Positions 1-37,518 of a DNA stretch of 64,000 nucleotides are shown one piece after another. This stretch comes from Gautieria morchelliformis (Eukaryota > Basidiomycota > Agaricomycetes > Gomphales > Gomphaceae). The number at the start of each line of letters is the position of its first letter. The first letter of the stretch is position 1. The translations under genes were made by a program, and so were the position numbers. The notes below the pieces were generated by a model. It was not told where the DNA came from and searched no databases. It saw only the letters and a program-made list of their open reading frames with translations. The DNA lies in the NCBI GenBank assembly GCA_015179125.1, contig WHVA01000088.1:1-64000 (forward strand), written 5' to 3'.

Positions 1-188
1 GCATGGGTTCAGCCTCAGTGCCGATTGTGATGTCCCACAGTAGGCGGTGGCACCATGCGGCCTAGTTATCCTCGTTTAGGGGTTCGATCTTGTAATTGTT
101 ATTTGGGGTGGCAAGGACATTGTAGATCAATTGTTACTGATATGGAAGGTTGGTTGGTCAGATATTAGTTATGGCCGGGGCCCATAAC
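1..188 (-). pseudogene. Copia primer site and gag start, left arm
   Basis: This is the mirror copy of 23064-23255. On the minus strand it reads primer-binding site (ggttatgggcccc), leader, and the start of a copia gag ORF that is interrupted by an in-frame TAG at the same place as the other copies of this family. The rest of the element lies outside the window. Confidence 0.75.
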
Positions 189-526
189 CTATGGGTTGAA
201 GCGCTCACAGTGTAAGGGGCGACTCTAACAGGTGCTCTACTCCCTAGAGCGGCACCTGAGGTAGAGGAGATCCAAAACAGTATATAATGAGTCAACAGTG
301 AGCAGGTAAATACAAGACAGCGCACCTGAGGTAGAGGAGATCCAAAGAGCATGGAGTGAGGATCTCCTTACCTCAGCGATGAACTATATAGCTGCTACAC
401 CAATGACATAAGCGACCCAACATAACTGGCAGTGACACAGGAAGGAATAGGGGAGGATACAATGAAGGAGATCTGAGGAATGGAAATACAAGGAAATAAA
501 AGGCAGGACAGGTGGTCCCTGACATC
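189..526 (-). mobile_element. Copia LTR-like block, left arm
   Basis: On the minus strand this begins TGATGTCAGGGGACC directly after a G-rich tract that resembles a polypurine tract (agaggggggg), and it ends at the copia primer-binding site. It contains two direct copies of a block that reads cacctgaggtagaggagatc on the plus strand (about 251 and 323). It is the mirror of 22727-23063. The LTR ends are inferred from the flanking polypurine-like and primer sites, because no second LTR of this type is present. Confidence 0.5.
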
Positions 527-1398
527 ACCCCCCTCTAGGGAGGATGTTTATAACTGTCATATATATGTATATATAGCTTAGCTCATCTATATTTCATACA
601 ATATATCACAATTGAGGCAGTTGCCAGCATCTGTAAGACATGCTTAATCCTAGCCCTAAAGTTCTTTCTCACAGTCTGCTGCTCCCCCAGGAAAGGGTGT
701 ATACCCCATTGTCTAAACATCAATAGTTACACATCTTTGTACTATACATGCATATTATTTTAAACATACCTTCTAATCAGATCTCTCAACCATATATAAT
801 AATATAGTACAGGTATTGTCCATACTTGCTTCTATATTCTGTGATTGTACATCTAACATGTTTCATATATGCTTCTAACATATACTCATATAGTCCATAC
901 TCGCCTCTACATTCTATCATCATACATGTAACAAGCGTCATATATACTTTTAATATATAGTCATCCACATCCTCTCTGAAATTTCTCTGTTATCTCAATA
1001 CACACCATGCCTTAGCACATACAACCATATTTGTAAAATATCAGAACATTCAAAAAATTTAGGATGTCCACAATATACAAGTTGCTCAAAATGATGGATT
1101 ATGAATTTGGTTAGGGTTGATATTTTACACCCGTTTGCAGTACCTAAGGCGCGCGTCGGATTTGCTTCCGTTTTAGCGCGCAAACTTCGAACAACGATAT
1201 CTTGCTTGATATCGCTCCGATTCGCTTGAAATTTCATATCTGAAGCTATGTGGACCATAGCTAGGGCATAGAACTAAAAAATCCGAATAAAACAAGCATT
1301 TTTTATTTTGCATTTTGGGTGCTGAGGGGGGAACAATGTCAAGCTTAGCTTACTGTATGTAGTTCAATGCAGGTTTTAATCTTGTTTGCTACTTTGTA
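527..1398. other. AT-rich stretch, no gene recognised
   Basis: This is mirrored at 21857-22726. It has AT-rich sequence with TATA runs and, at about 1140-1260, a more GC-rich island with short palindromes around gatatc. Short ORFs at 786-968 and 995-1258 (minus) have no recognisable domain. I see no RNA gene or clear promoter. Confidence 0.5.
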
Positions 1399-2168
1399 CT
1401 AATGGTGAGAACCCACTACAGGAGAATCTCCAGAAGAGGGTGTCATGGGATTGGAGAGGAAGGGCTTAGCTTCTTCTGACATTGGATCAGTGAGATCTGA
1501 CGGTAGGCGTTCATTCTCAATGTCGGATTTCCTCCTGTGTAGCATAAGCCCCGAAATCTTTGATCCCTTCCGCACCGAGTGCCAATGCACCATAAGGCAA
1601 CTTCGCCGATCCTGACACGTTCTTGAGCTCAGAAACCGCGGGGGCGCACGCGTATGCGGTGGGGTGAGGGGCGCGGAGGTGCTGGGGTGGGCGAGCTGGT
1701 ATAGGAGGACGGGGTGGTGGGGGAGCAGGCGGCGGCGGGTGCAGGTGCGGGTGCAGGTGCAGGTGCGGGTGCGGGTGTGGGTGCAGGTGTGGGTGCGGGT
1801 GCAGGTGCGGGTGCGGGTGCAGGTGCGGGTGCGGGTGCGGGTGCAGGTGCAGGTGCGGGTGCGGGTGTGGGTGCAGGTGCGGGTGCGGGTGCGGGTGCAG
1901 GTGCGGGTGCGATTGCAGCACGGACGACACGGAGCTCATCGTGAGGAGACTGGGCATACGGTTAGCAGGGTGCAGGGGCGTCGACACACCTTGACACCCA
2001 GGGGACTCCACCCAGGGGACATGGGGGATACCGGCCCAAACGGCAGCCGGTAGAGGGACGGGAGCGCAGACGTGACATGACTGGGCTGGCGGCCCTCGAG
2101 GCGTGCGAGGGCGTCGCCGCGGTTGGTGTTGCGGTAGCGCTTGGGGCGCGGGACGTGGCGGTGGTCAT
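1399..2168 (-). CDS. Low-complexity Ala/Pro or His/Pro ORF, left arm
   Basis: The minus-strand frames are open through a GC-rich hexanucleotide repeat and would encode long Ala-Pro or His-Pro-His-Leu runs depending on frame. The upstream part (start near 2168) is rich in Ser, Thr, Ala and Pro. The downstream part (1399-1593) is less biased and contains KGSKISG and SDLTDPMSEEAKP. A 40-nt candidate intron with a GCTAAC branch point could join the parts. I do not recognise the protein. The base composition differs strongly from the flanks. A repeat-derived spurious ORF is equally possible. Confidence 0.3.
1738..1917 (+). repeat. GGTGCA/GGTGCG hexanucleotide array, left arm
   Basis: About thirty tandem copies of the hexamer ggtgcg/ggtgca/ggtgtg. 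The mirror copy at about 21338-21517 differs at one site, where cacctg has become cactg, which shifts the encoded repeat frame. Confidence 0.9.
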
Positions 2169-2532
2169 CGCGAGGGTGTTGACGGTAGGAGTGATGGAGC
2201 CGCGGTCGGTTGGGGTGAGGGTGGACGACAGGAAGGAACTGCTTGTGCTTGTACGAGTAGAAGGGGCGCTTCAAGTCACAATGGTGGACTTGTAGTTGGG
2301 ACGCGTGACAGCCCTTTCAGCGAGGATGTAAAGTAAGCATAAGTAGCAAACTCACCAATAAAAACGGGATAGTGGCCATTCGACACCTGAAAATTACACT
2401 TGAGTTGGGGTTCAGCATTGGGAGTAAGGGTGCAAATGCTGTCGCACGATTCATGTCATAGAATTCTTGGTCAGGGTGTGTGTTTCGGGAACTTCCATTC
2501 TCCTTGAGTGTACTACCCACACCATCGCTCAT
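2169..2532. other. Region upstream of DDE gene, unassigned
   Basis: This is mirrored at about 20723-21085. Two overlapping minus-strand frames are open; one reads through NGHYPVFIGEFATYAYF and another through LPMLNPNSSVIF. This suggests a coding relic, but no family is recognised. The stretch also contains the presumed promoter of the DDE gene. Confidence 0.3.
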
Positions 2533-3737
2533 ATGCCTCGCCCTGGCAACCCTAAACCTGTTCGTCACATGTACAGCAAGGATCTGCGGGATCGCGTTAT
2601 ACACCAAAAATTCAAGCTCAACAAGAAATCAACCGATATTGCAATTGACCTCGATATGTCACCACATGTAGTTCAACGCACAATCAAACTCTGGCGGGAT
2701 GTTGGAGACGTCGTGGCAGAGCCAAAGCGGCTATCTCATGGGTCAAAAATGACCTCAGCTCAGAGTGAAGTAAGTAATTCATGTCTGTGTTTAGCTGTAG
2801 CTTATTTTATTTTATAACAGTTTCTTCTTGCGCTTCTTGAACGCTCGCCCGATCTTTACCTCGATGAGCTTGTCAAGAGCTAGAGGTGCAGCATGGTATT
2901 TTAGTAAGTTTATCAACTGTCTGGAGGACGCTTCGACATCTTGGCTTGCAAAGAAAGAAAGTGAGTCATTAAATCCTCGAAGAATGACAACCTTTATATT
3001 TGTCTCCAACCCAGCTTTCACGGGCAGCCGCAGAGCGCTGTGAAGCCTCGCGGACTGCTTTCCAGTTTCGTATTGGTAGTGAACCACCGGACCGTTTGGT
3101 TTTCACAGATGAAAGCGCAATTGACCTTCGCACAACGTATAGACTAATGGGATGGGCTTACAAGGGATGTAGGCCACGAGTGCGAGCACGTTTCCAAAGG
3201 GGCGAAAGGTAACGATTTGTGCACGGGCCTCCATTATTGTATCGCTAATATCCACTCAGATTTTCAATCCTTCCGGCGCTCTCACAAGATGGAATCATCT
3301 ATAGCCATATCAAATTAGGGGCATACGACGGTCCAGAGTTCCTTGGGTTTCTGAAGGGCCTTTTAGAGGTAATGAACCCTTACCCAGCACCACAGAGCGT
3401 TCTTGTTATGGATAACTGTGCCATTCACCACATACCTGAGGTCTCACTCTTATGTGCCCAAAGGTTTTTACCATTATAAACTGTTTTCACTAGTGTCTAA
3501 TCTTGCATTTGCAGAGGAAACAAACTGATGTATCTTCCGCCGTACTCGCCCGACCTCAACCCAATCGAAGAATCATTCTCCTTCATCAAAGCTCACCTCA
3601 GACGTCATGGTGCCGAATTCCGTGCATGTGTTGCAAGTAAGGAGAGGGCTGAGCTATTCATGTTTCTCTACGAGGCACTGGATCAGATTACACGCAGACA
3701 TGCGCGAGGGTGGATGAAGGACTGTGGCTATCTGTAG
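2533..3737 (+). pseudogene. Spliced DDE transposase (IS630/Tc1-mariner type), left arm
   Basis: This is a five-exon gene for a DDE-superfamily endonuclease, the enzyme that cuts and joins transposon ends in the nucleus. Exons are 2533-2769, 2821-2960, 3015-3208, 3260-3463 and 3515-3737, all with GT-AG introns of 51-54 nt. The N-terminal helix-turn-helix reads YSKDLRDRVIHQKFKLN and STDIAIDLDMSPHVVQRTIK. The catalytic block shows FTDESAID, LVMDNCAIHH and YSPDLNPIEESFSFIK, giving a D-D-E triad with roughly 34-residue spacing. The exons total 998 nt; one base is missing at about 2878-2880 (after ELVK), and the frame is otherwise open for about 332 residues. The right-arm copy has the same lesion, so it predates the duplication. 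No terminal inverted repeats were found close by. Confidence 0.85.
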
Positions 3738-3948
3738 TGCAGTTGTACTACTGTAATGTAATTTTTTTGTTGTCAGAATGTTGAAAATTATCTGCAATGT
3801 GATGGATGATATTGGTAAACAACACTTAGTAGTGCAAAAAGTACTCATTGGCCAATTACGTGCGTCGAGTATCGTAGTATTGTGATAATTCCTACAGTGG
3901 CTACAGGATCTCATAATATTATATGCGTTACATGCGGTCTTTCCCAGC

Positions 3949-5366
3949 TCATCCTCTCTCTTCACCTGTCATTTCCCCCTCATTAACATAATCCCAACTC
4001 TCTGGCAGGTCTGAAAGAGATTCAAGCCCAATCGTTACATACTGCTTGTATGGCTTGGTGGCCTGTAAAGTGTACTCATCGGCGTTCACCTTAACGAAGT
4101 CTGGTGTCAGCCATTCCAGAGCAGTCTCCCGAGAAAGCGTTAACCATTGAATCAAGAGTTCGGAGAATGGCTTGAAGCCCTTGGAGAAGTCTTTCGCGGC
4201 ATCCTGTTGCTTTAACCTATCAAGGAAACTTCCCCTAGCTTGTAACACAGGTAACTCGTCGGAGAGCATTGTTTGACGGTAATTCTGTTCTAGTCGCCCG
4301 AGTGCCCCCTTGGTCTCCAGAATCTCCAGAATCGACCAAAATAAAACCCATATAAATGACTCCAGGTCATCAATTACTTGGTGCACAACTTGCGTTCCAG
4401 AGTCCCAAGCAACAATCAGCGCCTGAGACATGAAAGGCAGCGTACCCTAGAACCATGTAAATCACAAGCCGCACACAGCAACTAAAGACCCACCGAGCGA
4501 TGCTTTGCTAATTCCCGCTTCTGATCCATCCAACGAATCGCCTGGTCCCCATCACATATGAATCCCACACATCTAGTAACTTCTCGAGTCACGGCAAAAC
4601 TGAAGCAAACATAAAAAAACGAAAGGACTGATGTGAAAGACGGTACGTACTCTGCCACAGGCGGCCGCTCAGCTTCATCCATCAGCATGACGTTCCCGAC
4701 GCTTACGTCGCGGTGCAACCAGCCGTTCTTAAACAGCCCAAAATGCCCTGTCGATCACCATTATAGGTAAATCATGTCCGATGCCCTCTTCGTTCACATA
4801 CCCAACATGGCGTGCACTATAGAACGCACGAGCAATCGAGGAATTTGTGCAGCTCGCAGTGACGTCCCTCGGGTCTCAAAAACAGATCGCATATGTACTC
4901 GTTCGTCAGGCCTAACCCCGGCATATGGCTCTGGCGCACACACGGGCCAATACGTTGCGTCATCAGGTATGAGCTTATCCATTCCATCCTCGACAGGGCA
5001 TGAGACAAGGATGTCTGGCAGTCCAAATCCGCCCGATAACGCTCCAAACATTGTGCCTTCTTCGTTATGGGTTTTCAATGGCCATGAATCTTTCAGAATG
5101 ACAGTGTCCAGCAAGAGAAAAGATATGCCTCCCTTCAACCTCAAGGGTTCTCGACCGTCAGTCTCTTTTCCAGGCTGAGAACGCGGGGGTTGGTGACTTC
5201 GTAAGTTATACCGGTGAGTGGACGAAGGTTGAGCGGGAGAACCATCGGTGGCGGTTTCATCGTCAAACCCAATTGTTAACTACTGGCCCAGATCTCTAAA
5301 CATCAAAATGCACCCTTCTTGACCAAAAGATACACACGCGTTGCTCGTCCGCGAACGCAACGTCGG
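3949..5366 (-). pseudogene. FunK1 protein kinase, 3' part, cut by gypsy LTR
   Basis: This is the C-terminal lobe of a fungal-type protein kinase (FunK1 family, serine/threonine kinase-like). On the minus strand, the catalytic loop M-HRDVSVGN lies at about 4703-4718 and is followed by the C-lobe signature DDLESFIWVLFWSILEI in the ORF 3949-4431, with an intron between. Upstream, 4794-5144 encodes the segment before the catalytic loop (LPDILVSCPVEDG, AYAGVRPDERV), broken by frameshifts. The N-terminal half is missing because the gypsy LTR starts at 5367. The right-arm copy (17050-19306) retains that half. It lies tail to tail with the DDE gene. Confidence 0.8.
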
Positions 5367-5730
5367 TGTTTTGGAACCCGTTGAACTAAACGTAAAACTG
5401 TGGTGTTAAACACAATTCTAAAGTTCAATCAGAGATTTGACTTTACAAGCACACGCAAGCTTCGAAACTATTTTAACGGAGAACCCAATTAAGAAATTAT
5501 ACTCCGGTGAACAATCAGAATCAGTATTGGTACAGGAAGTGTAGCAATAGAGATTTAACTGAACACGTGTAGTTCTTAGATTGTGCAATACTTTGTGAGG
5601 TCAAAGAATGTTATTAGGCGTCCAAGGGTCCAGATACTTTAAGGGGGAAAGCTACCTAGAGTCTTAGGACCGCGGGTCGAGTGAATTAAAGACAACAATA
5701 ATCCCCAAGACGTGAAAAGATAGTTCTGCG

Positions 5731-6170
5731 CTTGAACTCTTCCTCAGTTCAAGTATGTCACTATTCTTGTGGCTTTTCTGGTTTTCCAACTCAACAAACG
5801 TAGGATATTAACTCACTTACCCTGAGTTAGGTTAATATCTGCAGTGCGTTGATTGATCAAGAAAGATCAATTACTCAAAAGGCTATTAACCCACTTAACT
5901 CAGAGTTAAGTTAATAATCTATTGCGTGAATTGAATAACTAATAACCAAGTCTATTAGATCACTGCTCAGAGTGGCGTCTAATGTACAGGATTACTAATC
6001 AGTTACTCTTAGTAATGTTGCTGTTCGCAGCGCGATTATTCAGAGCCTGCTGCAATTAAAATAGAGCACTCTTGTACTTCTCAGAGCCAATCAGAGTTGC
6101 TGCAATCTTAGACTGTAGCCAAGTCAGTGAGCCAGTACTTCGGTACAAGGCTGTGTTGAAGTCACACTTC
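5731..6170. promoter_or_regulatory. String of seven hairpins in LTR R/U5
   Basis: Seven consecutive inverted repeats lie in 440 bp: 5731-5753 (cttgaact/agttcaag), 5805-5838 (atattaac/gttaatat), 5852-5871 (attgatc/gatcaat), 5885-5915 (attaac/gttaat with an inner ttaactc-a-gagttaa), 5954-5983 (attaga/tctaat), 5991-6016 (attactaa/ttagtaat), 6130-6152 (agcc-a-gtac-ttcg-gtac-aa-ggct), plus a short eighth at 6158-6170 (gaagt/acttc). They sit downstream of the TATA box on the element strand, so they would be in the RNA leader. The same stems are present in the two other LTR copies. Confidence 0.75.
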
Positions 6171-6235
6171 AGTTACTCAAGGTATGAGTGGTTTGGTTAA
6201 AGATGATTGATTTCTTCACTGCTAAAACTGCAGGC

Positions 6236-6243
6236 TATTTATA
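6236..6243 (-). promoter_or_regulatory. LTR TATA box
   Basis: TATAAATA on the minus strand inside CAGTATAAATAGCC. It lies about 560 bp into the LTR and is kept in the inverted copy (about 13155) and in the solo LTR. It sets the probable start of R about 30 bp downstream. Confidence 0.65.
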
Positions 6244-6444
6244 CTGCATCTATCTAGCTTATGTAACTATTGCCAGGAACCTTGTAGAGGCTTCTACTAC
6301 TGTGAAGAACCTTGTGGAAGCTTAGAGAAGCTTCAGGAAAGGTTTGGAAACTATTGGAAGGCTGTGGAAGGTTCTATTGCTATATTGGGTTAAAGTCACA
6401 GCTCTGTGACAGTAAAGCTAAGAGTATGTAAGAAACTCCCACGC

Positions 6445-6631
6445 TCATGTGATTGTCATGTGATGAAGGAAAGTCATGTGACTTCAAGCTGGATTGAGGT
6501 CATGTGACTGTGTCATGTGATAGTCAGGTGACCGTAGATAATCAAGTGACTTTGAGGTCAGGTGATTGTCAGGTGACTGTGGATGATCAGGTGACTTTGA
6601 GCTGTTTTGAGGTCATGTGATAGTCATGTGA
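6445..6631. promoter_or_regulatory. Array of TCA-N-GTGA boxes in LTR U3
   Basis: There are twelve copies of an 8-bp near-palindrome in 187 bp: seven TCATGTGA, four TCAGGTGA and one TCAAGTGA. They lie about 200-390 bp upstream of the LTR TATA box. The core CANNTG is an E-box, the kind of site bound by bHLH regulators. The solo LTR at 37116-37345 has fifteen copies, so the array changes in length by whole units. Enhancer function is inferred. Confidence 0.7.
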
Positions 6632-6799
6632 CCGTGGGGAACTCTTAGCTAAACTATCAAGAGATTGTTGTATCTTGTGGACCCAATGTGAGTGTAGCAT
6701 AGAAATATTAATACAACCTTCCTTGAGGACATTTGAAACTAATTAACTACCTAGTAAATGTTCATAAATAGGTAGCTACTTTGTGGACGATCCCTAACA

Positions 6800-6813
6800 C
6801 TATCCCCCCTTTC
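6800..6813 (-). other. Gypsy polypurine tract
   Basis: The minus strand reads aaaggggggatag immediately before the LTR start TGTTAGGG. This fixes the strand of the element and identifies 5367-6799 as its 3' LTR. Confidence 0.85.
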
Positions 6814-6824
6814 AAATGTTCGCT

Positions 6825-7910
6825 TTAGACCAATTCTACATCTTCAAAATTCACTGAAGAATTCCTGGAAGGTGCTGGTGTCGCAGGGTACTGGTCAGAG
6901 TAGATGCGAGTATTGAAAGATGGTTTTGGAGACAAGTAGTCGATAGTAGAAGGATGAATAAAATAGGGATAACCGAGGGCGGCCTGTTCTTCGAATAGCT
7001 GCGCAAAGGAAGGCTGCCATTTAATGACTTGCTTGTTATGGTCGTTATGCTCGGTGTCGATGATAGGATGGATAGAGGAACGGTGAGCTTTGTTAGAAGA
7101 TTCTCCATTAAGAGTCGAATTGCTAGGAGATGAGTCGCGAGTTCTCTTGCGGCTCTGTCGCTCCGTACGGACTCCAAGAGTGTAAGCTTTTGGTTCAAGC
7201 CAATGCTCACGTTCGGCTTCATTGGAAATAGTCGTAGTATAACGAGTACGAGTGTTGAAACTCATATCTTCGCTGTAACGACGTCTGAGGGCCTCATAGA
7301 AGGGAAACTTTGTGGTGAGGTCCATGTATGCGTCATCTTCATCGTCCTTGATGCTGAGCAAGGTCTTGCCAGGTTCGAGAGGCCACTTCCAGGTGCAGTC
7401 CTCGAGATCGACGCAGTTTTCTTTTGCTTTAGCAGTCCACGCGGTGAGTTGATGGCTCGTCTGCTGCCACCTTTCAATCCACGACTCTATTTCGCTTTTC
7501 TCTCCAGGGATTTTCAAGAAATTGAAAGCGAGGTAATTGTCAGGTGGAATGGGAGCGCGTATCATGCTGATTTCGTGATATTTTTCGTCAGGAATGGTGA
7601 GCGGGAGTGTATTGGAATCAACATCTCCTTTCCAGCCTGCGGCGGCGGCAAGGATGTATCGACACTTCATGCGCACGGCTTCCCAAATGCTGTCTGCTAG
7701 TTCAGGACGGAGGTAGACGTAAGTCTTTCCGAATAGGAAGACAGTCGTCCAGTCGTGATGTCCAGGTTTGTAGTATTCAAAGTTGTCGGTGTGCTGGAAC
7801 TCAAACTGAGGCATGGACACCGCGGCTTGAACAACTTTGTTTCCATCGTGTGAGAGTTGGTAGTCGATTGATGTTACAGGTGGAAAAGAGACATGGAGAG
7901 AGATGGACAA
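6825..7910 (-). CDS. Extra 3' ORF of gypsy element, 361 aa, unknown function
   Basis: This is an uninterrupted ORF between the integrase/chromodomain ORF (ends 8076) and the polypurine tract. Its stop lies only about 12 bp from that tract, the place where retroviruses carry env. I see no signal peptide or membrane segment, so an envelope protein is unlikely. The N-terminal 150 residues look globular, with aromatic motifs such as FEYYKPGHHDWTTVFLFGK. A basic cluster at about residue 252 (RQSRKRTRDSSPS) resembles a nuclear localisation signal and is followed by a Ser/Asn-rich, probably disordered tail. I do not recognise the family. It is open while the neighbouring pol frames are broken, which hints at recent selection or a separate origin. 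Confidence 0.7.
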   Translation of the reverse strand: MSISLHVSFPPVTSIDYQLSHDGNKVVQAAVSMPQFEFQHTDNFEYYKPGHHDWTTVFLFGKTYVYLRPELADSIWEAVRMKCRYILAAAAGWKGDVDSNTLPLTIPDEKYHEISMIRAPIPPDNYLAFNFLKIPGEKSEIESWIERWQQTSHQLTAWTAKAKENCVDLEDCTWKWPLEPGKTLLSIKDDEDDAYMDLTTKFPFYEALRRRYSEDMSFNTRTRYTTTISNEAEREHWLEPKAYTLGVRTERQSRKRTRDSSPSNSTLNGESSNKAHRSSIHPIIDTEHNDHNKQVIKWQPSFAQLFEEQAALGYPYFIHPSTIDYLSPKPSFNTRIYSDQYPATPAPSRNSSVNFEDVELV

Positions 7911-8075
7911 GATTTCGATTGAGCGACGCTAGGTAAGTTGAGAGACTGTTTTTTTTGGATTTTTCAAGAGTTCTTTCTGATTTTTATGCGTTTTCTTGGA
8001 CTAGATAATTATATTCGTACACTGTTTTTCAAGACACGAAAACTGAGAGAAGGTTCTAGGTGAGTCTGATCAGCT

Positions 8076-8978
8076 CTAGAGTCTTCGTTTCCTTCCTTGA
8101 CTTTCGTCCCATTCTCGCACAACGTCCGGTGCGTTTTTCAAATGTTTTCGTGTTAACCATTCATCGAATTGAGGTCCATATCCAACGAATCTGGTCAATA
8201 ATTCTTCGGTACGTCTTCCGTTTCTCGCAGCTCTCCAGCGAGACTTGATGATTTTCTCAACTTCATACTCAGGTACTTCGGAGAAATCAGCCCTATCGAG
8301 ATGCTTCCTGGGACGATCTCCAAATTCTACCGGTGAGTCATTGTATTTCTCAAGGTGTGCCACATTTAGCACAGGATGTAGTCCGTATGATGCGGGCATC
8401 CTCAGCCGGTACGTGATAGGACTAATTTTTTCTAGAACTTCGAAAGGTCCATCATAGCGCATCTGGAGCTTTCGTCCTAGCCCACGCTTATTTTTCAATA
8501 AGGCTAAGGTGTGTGGATTTATTACAACTTGATCTCCAACTTCAAATTCGCTGATAAGCCGGTTTCGGTTGTAATTCTTTTGCTGCGCAACTTGAGAAAA
8601 TTGTATAGCCTCCTTGGCTTGTGACCTGTGAGTATCAAATTTTTCCATGAATTCCTTGGCTTTCTCGCTCTCAAACATCTCTGTTTCAGACGAGGGGTCC
8701 TGTTCGCTAAACTCTGGACGTGCGACTGCTTCGATCGGCTGGTGCAACAAGGTCGACTCAGTCAGGGGCTGGTATCCGTAGAGTAGGAATGCAGGTGAGA
8801 AATTTGTTGCTGAATGTGGAGTGGTGTTGTATGCAAGGCTAAATCCGTTAAGTAGGGTAGACCAGTCGTTCAAGCTGGAATTGACATATGTTCGCAACCC
8901 AACTTCAAGGATTTGGTTCATAACCTCAGTTTGTCCGTCCGCCTGGGGATGGTGAGCCGTAGTGAGTGCCCTTTTCAT
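8076..8978 (-). pseudogene. Gypsy integrase C-terminal half with chromodomain
   Basis: This minus-strand ORF of 300 residues starts in the integrase core (TTAHHPQADGQTEVMNQ, containing the catalytic Glu), continues through the GPFEVLEKI-type C-terminal domain (VNPH..., YRLRMPASYGLHPVLNVAHLEKY), and ends in a chromodomain (EYEVEKIIKSRW, FVGYGPQFDEWL). Chromodomains on integrase are the hallmark of chromoviruses, where they direct insertion to modified chromatin. A frameshift near 9110 separates it from the upstream integrase part; the middle catalytic Asp (ITDRDSKW) lies in the gap between the two ORFs. Confidence 0.85.
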
Positions 8979-9070: not shown

Positions 9071-10036
9071 CTACATGTGTGAAAAATAATTGGGCAGTTT
9101 GCTCTTCATTGACCGTACTTTGTGTGGGATAAAGATGGTGTATTTGGTGAGTTTATCCACTACTACAAGTATGTTATCGAAACCGTCACTCAGGGGGAGC
9201 TCAGGAATAAAGTCCATGCTCACGACTTCAAAGGGTCGTTCCGGAATCGGTATTGGTTGGAGCAGTCCTACGGGTGCGTGTTTCCGTGGTTTAGCCTTCT
9301 GACAGATATCACAGCTAACAATGAATCGTTTCAAGTGTCTACTCATTTTAGGCCAGTAGTACACACTTGCTAATCGATTGTAGGTCTTGTGATACCCAGC
9401 ATGCGCCGCTTCAGTAAGTTTGTCATGTGTTTCACTCATGATTTCCACTTGCTGATTTTTTGGTACACATAGCCTTCGATTTCCATTCCAATCTTCGAAG
9501 AATAACAGTCCATTGTCGTCTTCTGAAAATAATGGCTGGCAAGGTGTGTTCCAGTTCTCTGTTCCGCGCAATTCCTTTCTGATCCTACTGAAGTAAGGAT
9601 CGGAATCATATCCTGTTGTGAACTTACTGATCTCTTCTGATGCCAGAGCAGCTTGTAAGTTGAAAGATCGTGAGCCTGTGTAGCTGATGTTTAGATTTTT
9701 ATTTTTTACAGGTTCGGCCGATTGCAAGCTGACTTCTGTCTCGAAAATTGAAGGTAAGGCTCGTGCATTTTCATCTTCAAATTCTGTTACTAATCGAAGT
9801 GTTCTGGCTTCGAAATCAGGAGCTATTTCCGAGTAGAGATCGGTGAGTGAGTCTTGTTCTGGACTCAAGACTGTGTGCGTTGATTTATCTACCACAGGAC
9901 CATCTTGATGTGGTACGTTTCGTCGAAGTCGTGAAATAGGGTCTACGTTTGAGTGTACTCGTCCGGCACGATGTACAATCTTGAGGTCAGGGTAGGCTGC
10001 GAATACAGTTCCCCATGTGAGTAGTCTTCTATTCAC
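9071..10036 (-). pseudogene. Gypsy RNase H end and integrase N-terminal half
   Basis: The minus-strand ORF of 321 residues begins with the end of the RNase H domain (VFAAYPDLKIVHRAGRVHSNVDPISRL), followed by a linker and the HHCC zinc-binding domain of integrase (HDKLTEAAHAGYHKTYNRL, CDICQKAKPR). The first catalytic Asp is in VVSMDFIPELP. The stop at 9071 follows a one-base frameshift near 9110, after which the integrase continues in another frame. Confidence 0.85.
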
Positions 10037-10039
10037 ATT

Positions 10040-11264
10040 TTGAAATGTTCGACTCCAAACTAATGCTGCGTGGTCTGTGATAGCCGTAATCTTTCTCCTT
10101 CAATGTAGGGCTGGAACTTCACTAATCCATCTCTTAGTGCCAATGCTTCTCGTTCTGTTGGTGAGTAGTTTCGTTCTGCTGGTTTAAGTGTTCTAGACCA
10201 GTAGGCTATCACTCTTTCTACATTGACCACTGTATCTTCAAAGTTCTGATTCCAATTTCGTTAGGTACCAGTTCTTCTGTATTAGAGACAGAGATTACGA
10301 GTTGTGGGACAGGTTTCTTAGACATGAATGCCGCTTGTAATTTATCATAGGCCTTGGTGCCCTTTAAATCACTGATTTTTATTGGCTGGACTTGCTGCAG
10401 AATAGCTGCAATTCCGACATCACACGCGTCTGAATAAACTCTATATCCCAACCCAGGAATAGCATAGCTCTAACGGGGAGCTCACTAGTGCAAGTTTTGC
10501 AAGTTCAAATGCTTCTTGCTGAGTTTGAGTCCATTCCCAGTGAGCTTCCTTTTTCATAGTTCAAATAAGGGAGCTACTATCCATGCATAGAAGGGATGTA
10601 TGCAGAAAAATAAACCATCATTCCAAGGAAGGTTTGTAATTCATGCAAATTTTTCGGTTCTGCTAGTTCTAATATTGCATCCACCTTTTCTTTATGAGTG
10701 GAAAGCCTAACTTGACACTTTTTGTCCCAATAGCATTAGAGACTGAATGCTATATACATTTGGCAGTGCTAAGGTGAGTCCTGACTTTGAAATAGCTCTA
10801 AAACTTGATCCAAATGCTGGAGGTGATCATCAAAGGTTTTAGAGTAGATTACAATGTCATCAATATAGACTAGTGAAAATATCCATAGAAATGGTGCAAG
10901 GACATTCTGCATCACACGTTGGAAGGCACTCGGGCCTTTCTGTACCAAAAGGCAAACGTCTGAATTGGTACAGCCTCGGTGTGTTCTGAAAGCAGTTTTC
11001 TCCTTGGCATCATCAGCTAATTTTAGCTGGGTGAACCCTGATAAGGCATCTAAGGTGGTAAGCCATTGCGAACCAGTAAGGGCTTGCAAGAGGGCATCCT
11101 GTCTGGGCAATGGAAACCATCTGGTATGCTTTCTCATTCAGCTTTCTGTAGTCAATACACATACGAGGCTTCCCATGGCGATAGGAAATCAGAGCAGGAA
11201 ATCCCCAAGACTTTGGATGGTTCAATGACTTCAAGTTGGAGCCACGTATCCATTTGTTTGTCAA
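10040..11264 (-). pseudogene. Gypsy reverse transcriptase and RNase H, broken
   Basis: The RT is spread over several minus-strand frames. RT fingers and palm are at 10769-11264 (FPALISYRHGKPRMCIDYRKLN, LDALSGFTQLKLADDAKEKT, FQRVMQNVLAPF, and the catalytic VYIDDIVIYSKT). The RNase H start is at 10218-10451 (YRVYSDACDVGIAAIL). At least four frame changes are needed to read through. The Tyr-Ile-Asp-Asp motif itself is intact. Confidence 0.8.
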
Positions 11265-11858: not shown

Positions 11859-13088
11859 CTACGGAACTGCGGCAGCACTTTCAGGTGGAATTGTAACAGA
11901 TTCTAGTGCGCGTACGTTTGAGTCGGCAATCCGAGCTCTAATCTGTTTCTTGGTTTTCTTAAGACGTCGATGAGCTTTGAACTTAGCTAATAAGGATGGC
12001 AAATTAGGTAAAGTTCTAATTTTAAATGTGTGCCCATTTTCATCTTGCAAAGATGTTCCAACTGAATTCTGGATGATGTGTGGATGACCAGAAGTTCCAA
12101 ATGTAAGGTAGCTTTCTGTTCCTTCTCTCATGATTGAGATGGAGTATTGATCCGCAAAGTCATTCCCAAGGATTACTGGTGTAGTCATTCCTTTTACAAC
12201 ATATGCCTCAACTTCAATCTGGACAGGACCAGAATCAGTGTCAAAGAATATTGGTAAGGTGACAAAGCCTGATATTTTGGAAGTACCAGTAACCTGAATA
12301 AGGTTGACTTTTTGGCCTGTTTTAACTTTTGGAGGATTGGTCATTGAGGACAAAGCTTTCTGGGATATAAGTGTGATGTCTGAGCCTGAATCCGCAACTA
12401 GTGTCTGCTGGTTCTTCTCATATTCATTGAGCCACACTTTAGTAGTCGTAGCATTTGATCCCAAGAATGCACATCCTGCTGGCCTGGACATGTACCGTTT
12501 CAATTTCAGCAAAGAGTTAGGAGCCCAACTAGTCAGTTTGGATCCCCCAAGGAAAGTAGAAACATGTTTGGCTTCACGCATGAGCCTGCGATGTTCTTTC
12601 CGGCCTTTGGGAGTGACTTTCAAGTCAGTTGTTGTACTCTTAGACGAAATATCAGGTAATGTTGTTTCCTCTATGTGATTTGATCCCCCCTGACAAGATA
12701 TACCCTTTAAGAGACTCATGTTAGGTCGAACTATGTTGCACTGTGCAGCATCAGGTCGATCAGATTCAGAATCCTCAGGATTTTCTTGATCAGTCGTATT
12801 ACTAGCTTCAGTGGAGGCTGTCATAAAATTGGTACGAGCTTTGTCCAAGTTTTCTTCTTCAGTCTCACTGTCCGTATCATAATACAGGGCATCATAGGCT
12901 TGCTGAGCTTCCATCCCTTCAGGAGTTAGGGCTACGTAATTAGAACGAGCTCTACGAGGTCCTGTCTTGGAATGTTTGCACTCATTGTCCCAATGCTTTC
13001 TGCTACCACAATGTCTACAACCTCTAGCACCTTTCTGTTCAGGTGTGCGTTTCCAAACCTTTCCTGAAGCTTCTCTAAGCTTCCACAA
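11859..13088 (-). pseudogene. Gypsy gag zinc knuckle and protease
   Basis: This minus-strand ORF of 409 residues has a CCHC zinc knuckle near the start (CRHCGSRKHWDNECKH, about residues 23-38) and an aspartic protease (TLVADSGSDITLISQKAL, with VILGNDFADQY downstream). The usual gag capsid region is missing. The first 13 residues (M-W-K-L-R-E-A-S...) are not gag at all but are read from the inverted LTR fragment that starts at 13050. The ORF is therefore a chimera made by a rearrangement that removed the 5' end of the element. Confidence 0.85.
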
Positions 13089-14034
13089 GGTTCTTCACAG
13101 TAGTAGAAGCCTCTACAAGGTTCCTAGCAGTAGTTACATAAGCTAGATAGATACAGTATAAATAGCCTGCAGTTTTAGCAGTGAAGCAATCAATCATCTT
13201 TCACCCAAACCACTCATACCTTGAGTAACTGAAGTGTGACTTCAACACAGCCTTGTACCGAAGTACTGGTCACTGACTTGGCTACAGTCTAAGATTGCAG
13301 CAACTCTGATTGGCTCTGAGAAGTACAAGAGTGCTCTATTTTAATTGCAGCAGGCTCTGACTAATCGTGCTGCGAACAGCAACATTACTAAGAGTAACTG
13401 ATTAGTAATCCTTTACCATTAGACGCCACTCTGAGCAGTGATCTAATAGACTTGGTTATTAGTTATTCAATTCACACAATAGATTATTAACTTAACTCTG
13501 AGTTAAGTGGGTTAATAGCCTTTTGAGTAATTGCTCTTTCTTGATCAATCAACGCACTGCAGATATTAACCTAACTCAGGGTAAGTGAGTTAATATCCTA
13601 CGTTTGTTGAGTTGGAAAACCAGAAAAGCCACAAGAATAGTGACATACTTGAACTGAGGAAGAGTTCAAGTGCAGAACTATCTTTTCACGTCTTGGGGAA
13701 TATTGTTGTCTTTAATTCACTCGGCCCGCAGTCCTAAGACTCTAGGTAGCTTTCCCCCTTAAAGTATCTGGACCCTTGGATGCCTAATAACATTCTTTGA
13801 CCTCACAAAGTATTGCACAATCTAAGAACTACACGTGTTCAGTTAAATCTCTATTGCTACACTTCCTGTACCAATACTGATTCTGATTGTTCACCGGAGT
13901 ATAATTTCTTAATTGGGTTCTCCGTTAAAATAGTTTCGAAGCTTGCGTGTGCTTGTAAAGTCAAATCTCTGATTGAACTTTAGAATTGTGTTTAACACGA
14001 CAGTTTTACATTTAGTTCAACGGGTTCCAAAACA
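13050..14034 (+). mobile_element. Truncated gypsy LTR in opposite orientation
   Basis: This is the reverse complement of about 5367-6350, in the opposite orientation to the 3' LTR. It includes the TATA region and the hairpin chain but lacks the TCA-N-GTGA array and the U3 end. It ends with GGGTTCCAAAACA at 14034, next to LINE sequence. A normal element would have its 5' LTR here in the same orientation as the 3' LTR, so this end is the product of inversion or recombination with a second copy. Confidence 0.9.
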
Positions 14035-15331
14035 CTTTCCGGAGTTCGGCCCAACAAATGAAAACACCTCGACCGACGGCTTGTACCCTCCAGAAGCGTT
14101 CCCGTTTACCCACATCACCGACGACCAGATCCGAAGGGCAATAGCTAAGCTGAACCCCTTTAAAGCTCCGGGCATGAACGGAATACCTAATGTACTAATC
14201 AAGCAGTGCGCAAACACGTTGATCAGCTACTTAGGCCCTCTGTTCAAGGCCACGTTCACTCTCGTGACATACCCTGATCAATGGCGAGACTCGGTCACAC
14301 GGGTACTGCGAAAACCAGCAAAAACAGATTACGCAGCCCCAGGAGCGTATCGCCTGATAGCGCTGCTCGACACAATTGGAAAGGTCCTCTCGTCTTGCAT
14401 GGCAGAAGACCTAGTAAAGATGACAGAACTCAAACACCTGCTGCCCAGCAACCACTTTGGGTGCAGACTGGGCCGCACTGCTACTGACGCGATACACTAC
14501 ACGGTCAGCGCAGCGAAGGACGCGTGGAGACGGGGGAAAGTCCTAGGCCTTCTCTTTCTGGACATCAAAGGCGCGTTCCCTAGTATCACATTAGACAGGC
14601 TGATACACAATATGAGACTGAGAGGGATCCCCCAAGAATATACCAGCTGGATCAGGAGGAAAGTCGAGGGGAGGTGAACCACGATGAGCTTCGACGACTT
14701 CACTACACCAATGATGGAGGTCAGAAGAGGCATGGATCAGGGGTGTCCGCTTTCGGCGATCACGTATCAGTACTACAACGGGGACCTCCTTGAGGTGGTA
14801 CGCACGGCGAGAGGGGAAGATGCGGTCGGGTTTGTAGATGACACCACGATACTAGCGGAAGGGAAGAGCCTGCAAGAAGCGTTTAACAAGCTAGCCGACA
14901 TAATGACGAGAGATGAGGGAGCGCTGACATGGGCACACACGCATAAGTGCCAATTTGCCGTCGACAAGTTTGGACTGATGGGACTCACCAGGAAAAGAGA
15001 GAGGGACCCATCAGCGGACAAAAAGACAAAGCCCATAGCACGACCGTCGATCAAAATAGGCCAGCACACGATCGAGCCAACCACGACGCACAAGTTCTTG
15101 GGAGTGCTACTCGACCAAGAGCTCAGGTTCAAAGACCACACCAACTATGCGCTGGCCAAGGGGGAGAGGTTTATCAACCAGTACAAGAGGTTGGCAAAAC
15201 CGTCCAAAGGAACTGTGGCCAAACACATGCGAAGATACTATCTAGCGGTAGCCGTACCCAGAATGCTTTATGCCGCTGACGGTTTCTTGTCCCAGGCTCG
15301 GAAAGAAGCAAGGGCACGAAAGGTTTCATAA
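14035..15331 (+). pseudogene. Tad1-like LINE reverse transcriptase
   Basis: Two plus-strand ORFs (to 14677 and 14684-15331) encode a non-LTR retrotransposon RT. Visible motifs are LNPFKAPGMNGIPN, FATYPDQW-type region 2, GAYRLIALLDTIGKVLSS, FLDIKGAFPSI and the catalytic FVDDTTILAEG, followed by KFLGVLLDQELRFKDH. A TGA at 14675-14677 interrupts the frame within VEGR-TTMSFDDF; an Arg CGA codon is the likely ancestor. The endonuclease and the 5' part are missing because the sequence starts at the inverted gypsy LTR. Confidence 0.85.
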
Positions 15332-16560
15332 ACAAGCTTGCCAGGGTTCAACGACAAGCTGCGCTATTCATCACCGGCACCATGAGATCTACCGCTAACG
15401 ACCTGCTAGATGCCCACGCGAACCTACTACCGTTCCACCTCCTAGTATCCAAAGTCATCCACAGAACCACCATACGCATGGTATGCCTGCCAGAAGCCCA
15501 CCCGCTCGCACCGAGGATCCGAAGAGCAGCCAAAAGGTACGTCAAGCGGCACCGCGCCCCCCTCCATGAAATACTGCACGCGTATGGACTCGACCCAGAC
15601 CGTATGGAGAAAATACAGCCGGTCGTGCTCGGTCCCAAATGGGAGCCCGCTTTCAAGATCAGGATCCCAAGTGATAAGGAACGGCGATCGAGGAAGTCAG
15701 GATCGACAGCGCAGACATCAAAATATTTTCGGACGGCTCATGTATTGATGGGGGGTCGGCGCGCAGCAATACTATACAACAAGGGTATAGAGACAAAGGT
15801 AGTGCAACTATACCTAGGACCAGAGGAGGAACACACGGTGTTCGAGGCGGAGCTGGTGGGGGCAGCATTAGGAGCAAAACTGCTGAACAAAGAGAGACAA
15901 ACAAGATACATGATCGCGGCCAACAATCAAGCAGTGATACAGACGATGAGGCGAGAGAGTTCAATATCTGGGCAATATCTGGTCAACGCGCTGCATCGAC
16001 AGATAGAGGGAGTGGTTGCCCAATGGGCAAAGACCGAAGTCATAATGAGATGGGTTCCCGGACATGAGGGAGTGCGCGCGGGAACGAAAGGGCGGACGAG
16101 GAGGCCAAAAGAGCGGCGAGGGGAGAGTCCAGCCAGGAGCAATGCATACCCAGAGAGTGCAGGGGGCGATTGCTGGCGAGCAAATCGGCAGAGCTGCAGA
16201 GACATCAGAGGGAGCTCAGAGGACAGGCGAAGGCAACATTTGCTAAGTCCCCGCGCGCAGCTATCGCACACAGAACAGACCCCTCACTACCATCTGCAGC
16301 GTTTGCCAGACTCACAGAAGAATGCCGCGCAAGCACGCGACGCTGCTAGTACAGTCAGGACAGGGCACGTAGCGTTGAACAAGCACTTAGCAAGATCGGC
16401 AAGGCGCCATCCCCAAGTGCCCGGGCATGCAGAAGGGCCAATGAAACGGTACACCACTACCTGTTCAGATGTCCAAGCTATGTAAAACAGAGGGAAGCAC
16501 TCAACGAGGAAGCTACGCAGAAGAAGCAGACTCGACGAGAGTCCTACGGCCAGACCCAAG
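15332..16560 (+). pseudogene. LINE RNase H and C-terminal zinc knuckle
   Basis: This continues the LINE ORF2 after a frameshift near 15331. It carries the thumb-like segment (MRSTANDLLDAHANLLPFHL), RNase H (IFSDGSCIDGG-like region near 15728 in another frame, FEAELVGAALGAKLL, AANNQAVIQTMRR, MRWVPGHEGV) and, after further frameshifts, a C-terminal CPxC...H...C knuckle near 16422-16480. At least three frame changes are needed. No poly(A) tail is evident; the 3' UTR may run to about 16800. Confidence 0.75.
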
Positions 16561-17049
16561 GCGATTGAAAGTCGCTGTTTTCAGTTACATCCAAGCCACG
16601 ATGAGGTTTGAGAGACGTTCGGCGGATCTAACTCTAAGGGAAGAGGACAAGGCGGGAATGGTGAATGACAGGAGACAGAGAAGCACATGGAGGAGCGAAG
16701 AAGGAATTTTTCCTCCCCGCCCACAGGCACGGACAGGCTCAGGGCTTCGCCCAAGAGCGAAGTAGAGATCGAGAAACATAGGACAGTAGAGATAAATTGC
16801 AACCGGCGATATGTATACCTTAGTACCGTCTGGAGCAGCGCACGGCACATTATTTGGTATTTAACCTTGAGGCTGGACCACCGCAAGAATGTAGACTGGT
16901 CACTTGTCACGTGACTTGTCCGCATGTACAACAGCTTCTGCCTCTCAGACTCGCACAACATAGTTCTTTACTTGTTGTCTTGCCTCTTAATTCTCAATAT
17001 TTGGGTATCCAGATCCATCAACACTGCCCATCTCTCAAGCTTCCGTTTG
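16561..17049. other. LINE 3' end and FunK1 upstream region
   Basis: No gene is seen. The first part looks like LINE 3' UTR. The last 150 bp, with pyrimidine-rich runs before the kinase start, is the presumed promoter of the right-arm FunK1. A cacgtgac motif is present at about 16909. Confidence 0.4.
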
Positions 17050-19306
17050 ATGATGAGCACACCATATAGCGTCAGATTCAGTAAGACTCATGAATCACAC
17101 ATTCGGACCCAGGATGATTTGAAAAAGCTGATGAAGGGCGAGTTCTCCGGTGTCGATATTCGAAGTAATTCTCTGCTTGAAGAGCGCTGTGGGCGGATCA
17201 AAAATTTGTCCGACGCTGTCCTATCCAAACTGAACCTGGCATGATTTCTGGGGACAGGCCAAACCGGGACCTTTTCAAGGGAATGCCCAGCCGCACTGGT
17301 CCAGAAGCGCTCATTATGCGCCGTTGGAGTGGTTACTCAACCAGATTCTGTCCATCTGCCCCCAAAAAGCTGCCGAATGGCAATATCCACCGAGGTCTTC
17401 AGTTTTACATGTACAGGTCGGAAATGGCTGGAGGACTCTGACAAAGACTCCCCCTACAACCAGACCTTGTTGGTTGTCAGTCTGTTGGTGAGAGCGAGGC
17501 TCGCAGCCGAAGCTTCTCATGGAACGAGGCTGAAATTTGCGTAGAGGTTTGAAGAATAACTGCCTGGTTTGATCCTGCAGTCAAGCACGATATCATGCAC
17601 TGTATGTTTCACACCACCGTATTGGATAGACTCTCGGTCACTGGTATCCATTTCAACAAACGCAACGATGGGGCTGCGGCTTATTGGATTTTATTCTCGC
17701 ATGGGTCTGGTGTTACGCCGGAACTTGGACCTCTCGAAAAGAGGGAGGCTTTAAAGGACTTTGTCCGCGGATGGTTGGGATTAATTCTTGGACCGACCCA
17801 AACACGCTGGAAACGATACTACTCTTATCATCACAGGACATTGCGATACCCGAGAGGGGTATATTTCAAAGATTTTTAAAACACTTTGTGACCGCATTGC
17901 GTTTTCGCCGGTAGGGAGCAACGGTGTTATTTTTGTCAAGAAGGTGCATTTTGATGTTTAGAGATCTGGGCCAGTAGTAACAATTGGGTTTGAAGGCGAG
18001 AACCGCCACTGATGGTTCTCCCACTCAAACCCATCCACTCACCGGTATAACTTACGAAGTCACCAACCCCCACTTCTCAGCCTGGAAAAGAGACTGCCGG
18101 TTGAAAAAACCCTTGAGGTTGAAGGGAGGCACATAGTCTTTCTTCTTGCCGGACACTGTTCATTCTTGAAAATCATGGCCATTGAAAACCCATAATGAAG
18201 AAGCACAATGTTTGGCGTTATCGGGCGGATTTGGGACTGCCAAGACATCCTGCGCTCATACCTGTGACACAAATGGTATTGGCCCGTGTTGTGCCGCCAG
18301 AGCCATACGCCAGTTAGGCCTGACGAACGAATACATATGATATCTGTTTTTGAGACCCGAGGAGTCACTGCGAGCTGCACAAGAATTCGATTGCTCGTGC
18401 GTTGCATAGTGCCACGCACATGTAGGGTATGTTTAAAAAATGAAAGAGGGATCGACATGATTTTACCTATAATGGTGACTTGAACAGGGCAAAATTTTTT
18501 TTTTTTTGGGGGGGTGGTCTTTAAGAACGGTTGGTTTGCACCACGACGTAAGTGGTCGGGAACATCATACTGATGGATTGAAGCTGAGCGCGGCTGTGGC
18601 AGAGTACGTACTGTCTTTCACCATCAGTCCTTTCTCTTTTTTACTGTTATGCTTCAGTTTTGCCATGGGGACTCTAGAAAGTTTACTGAGATGTGTGGAT
18701 TCATATGTGATGGGGACCAGGCGATTCGTTGGATGGATCAGAAGCGGGAATTAGCAAAGCATCGCTCGTGGGTCTTTAGTTGCTGTGTGCGGCTTGTGAT
18801 TTACATGGTTCTAGGGTACGTGCCTTTCATGTCTCAGGCGCTGATTGTTTGCTTGGGACTCTGGAACGCAAGTTGTGCACCAAGTAATTGATGACCTGGA
18901 GTCATTTATATGGGTTTATTTGTCGATTCTGGAGATTCTGGAGACCAAGGGGGCACTCGGGCGACTAGAACAGAATTACCGTCAAACAATGCTCTCCGAC
19001 GAGTTACCTGTGTTACAAGCTAGGGAAGTTTCCTTGATAGGTTAAAGCAACAGGATGCCGCGAAAGACTTCTCCAAGGGCTTCAAGCCATTCTCCGAACT
19101 CTTGATTCAATGGTTAACGCTTTCTCGGGAGACTGCTCTGGAATGGCTGACACCAGACTTCGTTAAGGTGAACGCCGATGAGTACACTTTACAGGCACCA
19201 AGCCATACAAGCAGTATGTAACGATTGGGCTTGAATCTCTTTCAGACCTGCCAGAGAGTTGGATTATGTTAATGAGGGGGAAATGACAGGTGAAGAGAGA
19301 GGATGA
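17050..19306 (+). pseudogene. FunK1 protein kinase, right arm, longer but frameshifted
   Basis: This is the right-arm copy of the fungal-type kinase, starting at ATG 17050 (MMSTPYSVRFSKTHESH, then EFSGVDIRSNSLLEERCG). It then shows AYWILFSHGSGVTPELGPL (17595-17760), an HRD-loop region near 18537-18560 that is disrupted by a poly-T/poly-G run, and the C-lobe signature DDLESFIWVYLSILEI (18845-19045). The reading frame is broken many times, often in homopolymers. The left-arm copy keeps a better C-lobe but lacks the N-terminal half. Its 3' end faces the 3' end of the DDE gene, as in the left arm. Confidence 0.75.
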
Positions 19307-19517
19307 GCTGGGAAAGACCGCATGTAACGCATATAATATTATGAGATCCTGTAGCCACTGTAGGAATTATCACAATACTACGATACTCGACGCACGTAAT
19401 TGGCCAATGAGTACTTTTTGCACTACTAAGTGTTGTTTACCAATATCATCCATCACATTGCAGATAATTTTCAACATTCTGACAACAAAAAAATTACATT
19501 ACAGTAGTACAACTGCA

Positions 19518-20722
19518 CTACAGATAGCCACAGTCCTTCATCCACCCTCGCGCATGTCTGCGTGTAATCTGATCCAGTGCCTCGTAGAGAAACATGAATA
19601 GCTCAGCCCTCTCCTTACTTGCAACACATGCACGGAATTCGGCACCATGACGTCTGAGGTGAGCTTTGATGAAGGAGAATGATTCTTCGATTGGGTTGAG
19701 GTCGGGCGAGTACGGCGGAAGATACATCAGTTTGTTTCCTCTGCAAATGCAAGATTAGACACTAGTGAAAACAGTTTATAATGGTAAAAACCTTTGGGCA
19801 CATAAGAGTGAGACCTCAGGTATGTGGTGAATGGCACAGTTATCCATAACAAGAACGCTCTGTGGTGCTGGGTAAGGGTTCATTACCTCTAAAAGGCCCT
19901 TCAGAAACCCAAGGAACTCTGGACCGTCGTATGCCCCTAATTTGATATGGCTATAGATGATTCCATCTTGTGAGAGCGCCGGAAGGATTGAAAATCTGAG
20001 TGGATATTAGCGATACAATAATGGAGGCCCGTGCACAAATCGTTACCTTTCGCCCCTTTGGAAACGTGCTCGCACTCGTGGCCTACATCCCTTGTAAGCC
20101 CATCCCATTAGTCTATACGTTGTGCGAAGGTCAATTGCGCTTTCATCTGTGAAAACCAAACGGTCCGGTGGTTCACTACCAATACGAAACTGGAAAGCAG
20201 TCCGCGAGGCTTCACAGCGCTCTGCGGCTGCCCGTGAAAGCTGGGTTGGAGACAAATATAAAGGTTGTCATTCTTCGAGGATTTAATGACTCACTTTCTT
20301 TCTTTGCAAGCCAAGATGTCGAAGCGTCCTCCAGACAGTTGATAAACTTACTAAAATACCATGCTGCACCTCTAGCTCTTGACAAGCTCATCGAGGTAAA
20401 GATCGGGCGAGCGTTCAAGAAGCGCAAGAAGAAACTGTTATAAAATAAAATAAGCTACAGCTAAACACAGACATGAATTACTTACTTCACTCTGAGCTGA
20501 GGTCATTTTTGACCCATGAGATAGCCGCTTTGGCTCTGCCACGACGTCTCCAACATCCCGCCAGAGTTTGATTGTGCGTTGAACTACATGTGGTGACATA
20601 TCGAGGTCAATTGCAATATCGGTTGATTTCTTGTTGAGCTTGAATTTTTGGTGTATAACGCGATCCCGCAGATCCTTGCTGTACATGTGACGAACAGGTT
20701 TAGGGTTGCCAGGGCGAGGCAT
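19518..20722 (-). pseudogene. Spliced DDE transposase, right arm
   Basis: This mirror copy of 2533-3737 has the same five exons, DDE residues and single-base deletion (near 20376). The two copies look identical over the coding part. The upstream flank differs by one base (ctacccac/ctaccac near 20736). Confidence 0.85.
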
Positions 20723-21085
20723 ATGAGCGATGGTGTGGTAGTACACTCAAGGAGAATGGAAGTTCCCGAAACACACACCCTGACCAAGAATTCTATGACA
20801 TGAATCGTGCGACAGCATTTGCACCCTTACTCCCAATGCTGAACCCCAACTCAAGTGTAATTTTCAGGTGTCGAATGGCCACTATCCCGTTTTTATTGGT
20901 GAGTTTGCTACTTATGCTTACTTTACATCCTCGCTGAAAGGGCTGTCACGCGTCCCAACTACAAGTCCACCATTGTGACTTGAAGCGCCCCTTCTACTCG
21001 TACAAGCACAAGCAGTTCCTTCCTGTCGTCCACCCTCACCCCAACCGACCGCGGCTCCATCACTCCTACCGTCAACACCCTCGCG

Positions 21086-23063: not shown

Positions 23064-23078
23064 GGTTATGGGCCCCGG
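23064..23078 (+). other. Copia primer-binding site
   Basis: GGTTATGGGCCCCGG follows the LTR end. GGTTATGGGCCC is the primer site type known from copia elements, matching an internal half of initiator tRNA-Met. The same motif follows the other copia LTR at 43018. Confidence 0.7.
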
Positions 23079-23132
23079 CCATAACTAATATCTGACCAAC
23101 CAACCTTCCATATCAGTAACAATTGATCTACA

Positions 23133-37513: not shown

Positions 37514-37518
37514 CGGCG

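What the first reader, a model, noticed from the sequence alone, without database searches (positions are those of the whole stretch)
6825..7910. Intact 361-aa ORF of unknown function in the env position of a chromovirus
Gypsy elements of fungi usually end with integrase. Here a complete ORF with a nuclear-localisation-like patch (RQSRKRTR) and no membrane segment lies between the chromodomain and the polypurine tract, open while pol is broken. It may be a captured host gene or an accessory factor for nuclear entry or silencing evasion. This is the best candidate for an undescribed protein in the window.
Basis: inference. Interest (0 to 1): 0.75.

Follow-up and report, generated by a model that had tools for sequence, protein, structure and literature searches.

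The report
Third gene of a mushroom retrotransposon
A group of retrotransposons in a truffle-like forest fungus carries, besides its standard genes, a third gene that selection has kept and that makes a soluble protein, possibly nuclear, for which no known relative was found; what it does for the element is unproven.

Summary
The ORF is real and is a third gene of the element, but it is not 'intact': the TTG and first codons are not native, since 12 of 12 other full-length copies start at an ATG that is out of frame here. In the window's own genome (inferred Gautieria morchelliformis) an ORF match lies beside 39 of 44 integrase/chromodomain loci of this clade and beside 0 of 78 integrase matches of other gypsy families. 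Over 13 copies dN/dS is 0.29; integrase/chromodomain gives 0.27 (9 copies), the wrong frames 0.73 and 1.26. Longer copies also have an upstream gag region. The protein has a confidently predicted N-terminal domain (pLDDT 85, pTM 0.82), no significant Pfam or PDB match, no membrane segment in the window protein, and a disordered tail with a conserved K-R-x-R patch. I read it as a sense accessory ORF, most likely a nuclear adaptor; that function is inferred. Two loci may keep it after losing most of pol (coordinates only). 'Captured host gene' is unsupported.

The parts
6825..7889 (-). Body of the third ORF (accessory protein) in the frame shared by the other copies; stop codon 6825-6827
7890..7910 (-). 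TTG and first codons of the listed frame: not native; the ATG used by the other copies (7892-7894 here) is out of frame with the body
7365..7889 (-). Conserved N-terminal domain (residues 1-175 of the shared body), confidently predicted
7125..7148 (-). KRTRDSSP, conserved K-R-x-R patch in the disordered tail (NLS-like)
6990..7034 (-). KQVIKWQPSFAQLFE, second short conserved motif of the tail
7929..7940 (-). 3' splice-site-like sequence in the pol-ORF spacer; exact CAACTTAYCTAG in 11 of 13 copies, TAG end in 13 of 13 (read by eye from the alignment; function not tested)
8076..8978 (-). Integrase C-terminal part with Tf2-1-like SH3 domain and weak chromodomain
9071..10036 (-). End of RNase H and H2C2 zinc domain of integrase (piece of pol)
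10769..11137 (-). Piece of reverse transcriptase (frame; RT by resemblance to the L029 frames that match RVT_1)
11859..13088 (-). 3' end of gag (CX2CX4HX4C pattern; Pfam only E 0.042) and aspartic protease region (Pfam E 0.0046, below cut-off), truncated on the gag side
6800..6813 (-). Polypurine tract
5366..6800 (-). 3' LTR, about 1.43 kb
13049..14035 (+). Part of an LTR in inverted orientation (arm of a large inverted repeat), not the 5' LTR of this element

Best explanation
Shown: the ORF is a third gene (sense, between pol and the polypurine tract) of a clade of gypsy elements with a chromodomain-like integrase end, and it is kept by purifying selection about as strongly as that part of integrase. 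Shown by prediction and conservation: a soluble protein with a conserved N-terminal domain of about 175 residues and a disordered tail with two short conserved motifs, one a K-R-x-R patch. Inferred: it is made separately from gag-pol, perhaps from a spliced message, and works as a nuclear adaptor. On this reading the tail takes it into the nucleus, and the N-terminal domain binds a partner (integrase, Gag, element cDNA, or a host chromatin factor), so that the element's DNA enters or is aimed, or its expression is kept up. I put about 0.95 on 'real accessory gene' and about 0.45 on 'acts in the nucleus'.
For: Coupling: all 13 full-length family-1 ORFs have an integrase/chromodomain match 130-191 bp away, 12 of them upstream on the same strand; 18 of 19 family-1 and 21 of 25 family-2 integrase loci have an ORF match within 3.5 kb; 0 of 78 integrase matches of other gypsy families have one within 5 kb. 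Selection: dN/dS 0.29 over 13 copies (first 180 codons 0.21, rest 0.40), integrase/chromodomain 0.27 over 9 copies, wrong-frame readings 0.73 and 1.26; two-state codons N:S 59:54 against 2.1-3.0 expected without selection. Separate from gag and pol: frames of L029 and L030. Eleven invariant columns in 27 rows, most rows 31-44% identical to the window protein. Nuclear hint: the KRxRDxSP pattern in 20 of 27 rows, a K/R-R-x-R patch in 21 of 27, in a stretch of pLDDT under 50.
Against: Nothing here measures expression, localisation or binding. K-R-x-R patches are common and do not prove import. The published parallel with a nuclear protein (Grande) is an antisense ORF. No sequence or fold match gives a function. 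5 of 44 integrase loci lack an ORF match, one of them (C222) with a nearly complete integrase end. More abundant gypsy families of the same genome have no match to this ORF. Pairs of copies are not independent, and the wrong-frame controls use the same sites.
Confidence: 0.5

Rival explanations
1. Anti-silencing factor: the protein blocks a host genome defence (small RNA, DNA methylation or heterochromatin) so that its element is transcribed.
For: Only one clade carries it. It changes faster than integrase between subfamilies (33-45% against 50-66% identity), as an arms-race protein might. Its tail is disordered with short motifs.
Against: dN/dS is below 1 in both parts. No known suppressor family matches. 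Abundant families without it persist in the same genome.
Confidence: 0.2
2. Particle or replication partner: the protein works in the cytoplasm with Gag or reverse transcriptase (assembly, packaging, chaperone).
For: It moves with gag-pol, and two loci seem to keep gag-protease and this ORF without most of pol, which would fit a link to Gag.
Against: No capsid or nucleic-acid-binding family was matched; the window protein is acidic (pI 5.6); most elements have no such gene, so it is not a general need.
Confidence: 0.15
3. Captured host gene: a host protein picked up by the element and still doing its old job.
For: Position before the 3' LTR is where captured sequence often lies (recalled); 9 of 48 ORF loci have no integrase match nearby.
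Against: No free-standing homologue was identified in this genome; 2 of the 9 lie beside gag-protease. It is present in at least two diverged subfamilies, so any capture is old.
Confidence: 0.1
4. Envelope-like protein for leaving or entering cells.
For: It lies in the env position.
Against: No membrane segment in the window protein (highest 19-residue mean 0.56). Peaks of 1.75 in P0013 and 1.64 in P0016 lie outside the conserved part.
Confidence: 0.02

Closest known systems
Sense additional ORFs (env-like) of plant LTR retrotransposons (PMC7264820, passages)
   Same: Extra sense ORF between pol and the 3' LTR, present in most copies; a spliced message is reported for some (Bagy2)
   Different: Plant elements, discussed as env-like; this protein has no membrane segment and is fungal; no sequence comparison with them was made
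Antisense accessory gene of maize Grande and the Retand lineage (PMC11963269 and PMC7264820, passages)
   Same: Protein of unknown function between pol and 3' LTR; Grande's is reported as nuclear
   Different: Antisense, non-chromovirus plant elements; Retand ones carry a Pfam domain (TRP28)
Antisense ORF of Boty in Botrytis and Sclerotinia (named in PMC7264820, passage)
   Same: Fungal LTR retrotransposon with an extra ORF
   Different: Antisense; sequence not compared here
'Additional ORF with unknown function' in the Figure 3 legend of a survey of fungal Gypsy elements (PMC2864245, section 5 and passages)
   Same: An extra ORF was noted in a gypsy element of that survey
   Different: The figure is not held, so which element has it, where and on which strand was not seen; kinship unknown
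ORF3s of bdelloid rotifer LTR retrotransposons (PMC5408684, abstract)
   Same: Non-envelope third ORFs carried by LTR retrotransposons
   Different: Those named are esterase, exonuclease or envelope; this one matches no family

Membership tests
Sense accessory ORF of LTR retrotransposons | Lies between pol and the 3' LTR in the sense of gag-pol | tested here: met
   12 of 13 full-length family-1 copies on the same strand, 130-191 bp from the integrase match; about 11 bp before the PPT in the window
Sense accessory ORF of LTR retrotransposons | Present in most copies of the family | tested here: met
   39 of 44 integrase loci of the clade
Sense accessory ORF of LTR retrotransposons | Conserved as protein | tested here: met
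   dN/dS 0.29 against 0.27 for integrase/chromodomain
Chromovirus (chromodomain Gypsy) | Chromodomain at the integrase C-terminus | tested here: inconclusive
   Chromo E 5.5e-4 in the window and 0.0082 in L029, both below Pfam's cut-off
Chromovirus (chromodomain Gypsy) | Place in an RT/integrase tree | not tested
   No tree was built
Envelope protein | Membrane segment | tested here: not met
   Highest 19-residue Kyte-Doolittle mean 0.56 in the window protein
Gag/capsid duplicate | Capsid sequence or fold | tested here: inconclusive
   No match listed, which excludes nothing; an upstream gag region exists
Captured host gene | Free-standing host homologue | tested here: inconclusive
   None identified; 7 of 48 ORF loci have neither integrase nor gag-protease listed nearby
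Nuclear protein | Import into the nucleus | not testable with these tools
   Only a conserved K-R-x-R patch

The most novel reading that the evidence does not exclude
A previously undescribed retroelement accessory protein with a new fold, carried by a clade of fungal gypsy elements, that acts in the nucleus (integration targeting or anti-silencing) and is useful enough that derivatives without most of pol keep it.
Probability: 0.25. Interest if true: 0.75.

Novelty: new variant of a known kind. Interest (0 to 1): 0.5.

Why it matters
A survey of fungal Gypsy elements reports that most full-length ones have only Gag-Pol in one or two ORFs (PMC2864245, section 5). Here a clade with at least two diverged subfamilies keeps a third, sense gene under selection similar to that on integrase, with a confidently predicted domain that no search could place. 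If it is nuclear, it gives a tractable case of why a retroelement without an envelope needs an accessory gene: entering the nucleus, aiming integration, or resisting silencing. Families with and without the gene live in one genome, so they can be compared directly.

Tried and rejected

One search counts a stop in 6 of 9 integrase segments; at least some are a shared stop near the end of pol (L030's frame ends a few codons before the window's), so I argue nothing from them. Dropped rows: 44 multi-state codons in the N:S count; 5 of the 32 rows of A2 (P0026, P0028-P0031) left out of A3 and A4 as short, mixed or oddly spliced. In the coordinate scripts I entered 24 of 64 rows and 32 of 69 (leaving out mostly second pieces and family overlap), 140 of 144, and 54 of 81. 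In one search, 4 of the 24 family-1 rows and 12 of the 32 family-2 rows had no integrase match within 1.5 kb. Integrase and H2C2 searches scored 131 of 3912 and 124 of 3586 candidates, so family counts are lower bounds. The last protein search scored only 7995 candidates.

Full report
The observation. The frame at 6825-7910 (minus) is there, 361 codons from TTG. Upstream on the same strand lie the integrase C-terminus with a Tf2-1-like SH3 domain and a weak chromodomain; downstream, about 11 bases after the stop, come a polypurine tract and an LTR of about 1.43 kb. 'Intact' is not right. In 12 of 12 other full-length copies the protein starts at an ATG (MSLF..) that in the window is out of frame with the body because of a length change in the first codons, so the TTG and the first codons are not native. 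The body is open. The window copy is also short at the gag side: the second LTR piece, 13049-14035, is inverted and belongs to a large inverted repeat.

The host. The window is the start of contig C981 in an assembly of 122 Mb. Protein P0015, named as Gautieria morchelliformis, is 100% identical to C463:9187-10224 of this assembly, and P0026's contig length equals that of C456. The genome is therefore inferred to be that of Gautieria morchelliformis, order Gomphales.

The element. Longer copies (L029, L030) show, in order, a gag region, protease, RT, RNase H and integrase; in L029 the enzymes match Pfam models for RT, RNase H, H2C2 and SH3_Tf2-1 above their cut-offs, while protease, integrase core and chromodomain are below, and the gag pieces match none. 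In L029 a spacer of 180 bases follows pol, then this ORF. In the C684 copy the LTRs differ at 8 of 625 aligned positions, so that insertion is young. The ORF is separate from gag and pol.

Coupling to the element. The ORF query gives 64 matches in the genome, 13 of them full-length at 90-100% identity and a second group near 33-45%. All 13 full-length copies have an integrase/chromodomain match 130-191 bp away, 12 upstream on the same strand and one (C349:107050) with the integrase piece inverted. By locus, 18 of 19 family-1 and 21 of 25 family-2 integrase loci (50-66% identical to the window's in the second family) have an ORF match within 3.5 kb, and 39 of 48 ORF loci have an integrase match. 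Of 78 integrase matches from other gypsy families (33-38% identity), 0 have the ORF within 5 kb. As far as these searches see, the gene is a trait of one clade. More subfamilies of the protein appear with P0015 and P0017 as queries.

Selection. Over 13 copies and 352 codons dN/dS is 0.29 (0.21 in the first 180 codons, 0.40 in the rest); integrase/chromodomain in 9 copies gives 0.27; the same alignment read in the two wrong frames gives 0.73 and 1.26. Over 78 pairs the median is 0.29, range 0.10-0.61. In two-state codons N:S is 59:54 (shared 16:19, single-copy 43:35), against 2.1-3.0 expected without selection under four mutation settings, a ratio of roughly 0.36-0.52; so the strength depends on the mutation model, but the direction does not. 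Nine of 13 copies are open from ATG to stop, three carry stops, and the window copy has lost its start. This is the pattern of a gene used while the element moves and decaying after insertion.

Mechanism. Most likely it is an accessory protein acting in the nucleus as an adaptor. The K-R-x-R patch fits the classical import signal (recalled) and is one of two kept motifs in the tail. How it is made is open: a splice-acceptor-like site stands in the spacer (exact CAACTTAYCTAG in 11 of 13 copies, TAG end in 13 of 13, read by eye), compatible with a spliced message such as that reported for some plant elements (PMC7264820, passages). Rivals, in falling order: anti-silencing role, partner of Gag, captured host gene, envelope.

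A lead. Both protease and ORF matches were found on one strand at 24 of 48 ORF loci. Their extrapolated spacing is 3.9-4.7 kb at 17, longer (5.3-12.5 kb) at 5, and 930 and 932 bases at C835 and C559:250600. The integrase and H2C2 lists have nothing at those two places. Two loci with the same shortening suggest a derivative that lost most of pol and kept gag-protease and this ORF. The letters could not be fetched, so this rests on coordinates only, and the pair could be one duplicated locus.

Known or new. Extra ORFs between pol and the 3' LTR are a known kind in plants (PMC7264820, PMC11963269, passages); one antisense case is named in fungi (Boty, PMC7264820); and an 'additional ORF with unknown function' appears in a figure legend of a fungal Gypsy survey (PMC2864245). 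PMC3248453 and PMC3411680, seen in passages only, showed no such ORF. Seven literature searches listed no description of this protein. I rate it a new variant of a known kind.

Noticed in passing
G000 C835:8908-11069 and C559:248796-251398: Protease-to-ORF spacing of 930 and 932 bases instead of about 4 kb: possible derivative without most of pol that keeps this ORF.
   Followed up: partly
window 1-6351 and 13049-23253: Large inverted repeat, arms 95-100% alike, at the very start of contig C981; the right arm has an extra stretch (14036-17960) that reads like a LINE fragment (no domain search run). Assembly artefact or real inverted duplication.
   Followed up: partly
window 36037-37514: A further LTR copy of the same family, 96% identical over 1480 columns, possibly a solo LTR.
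   Followed up: no
G000 C349:107050-108597: The ORF and its chromodomain piece lie on opposite strands: a local inversion inside the element.
   Followed up: no
window 2467-3740, mirrored within 19261-20738: Reads like a Tc1/mariner-type transposase gene with introns; from reading only, no search was made.
   Followed up: no
window 1669-1948, mirrored at 21308-21572: Tandem GGTGCG/GGTGCA-type repeats with 12- and 18-base spacing.
   Followed up: no
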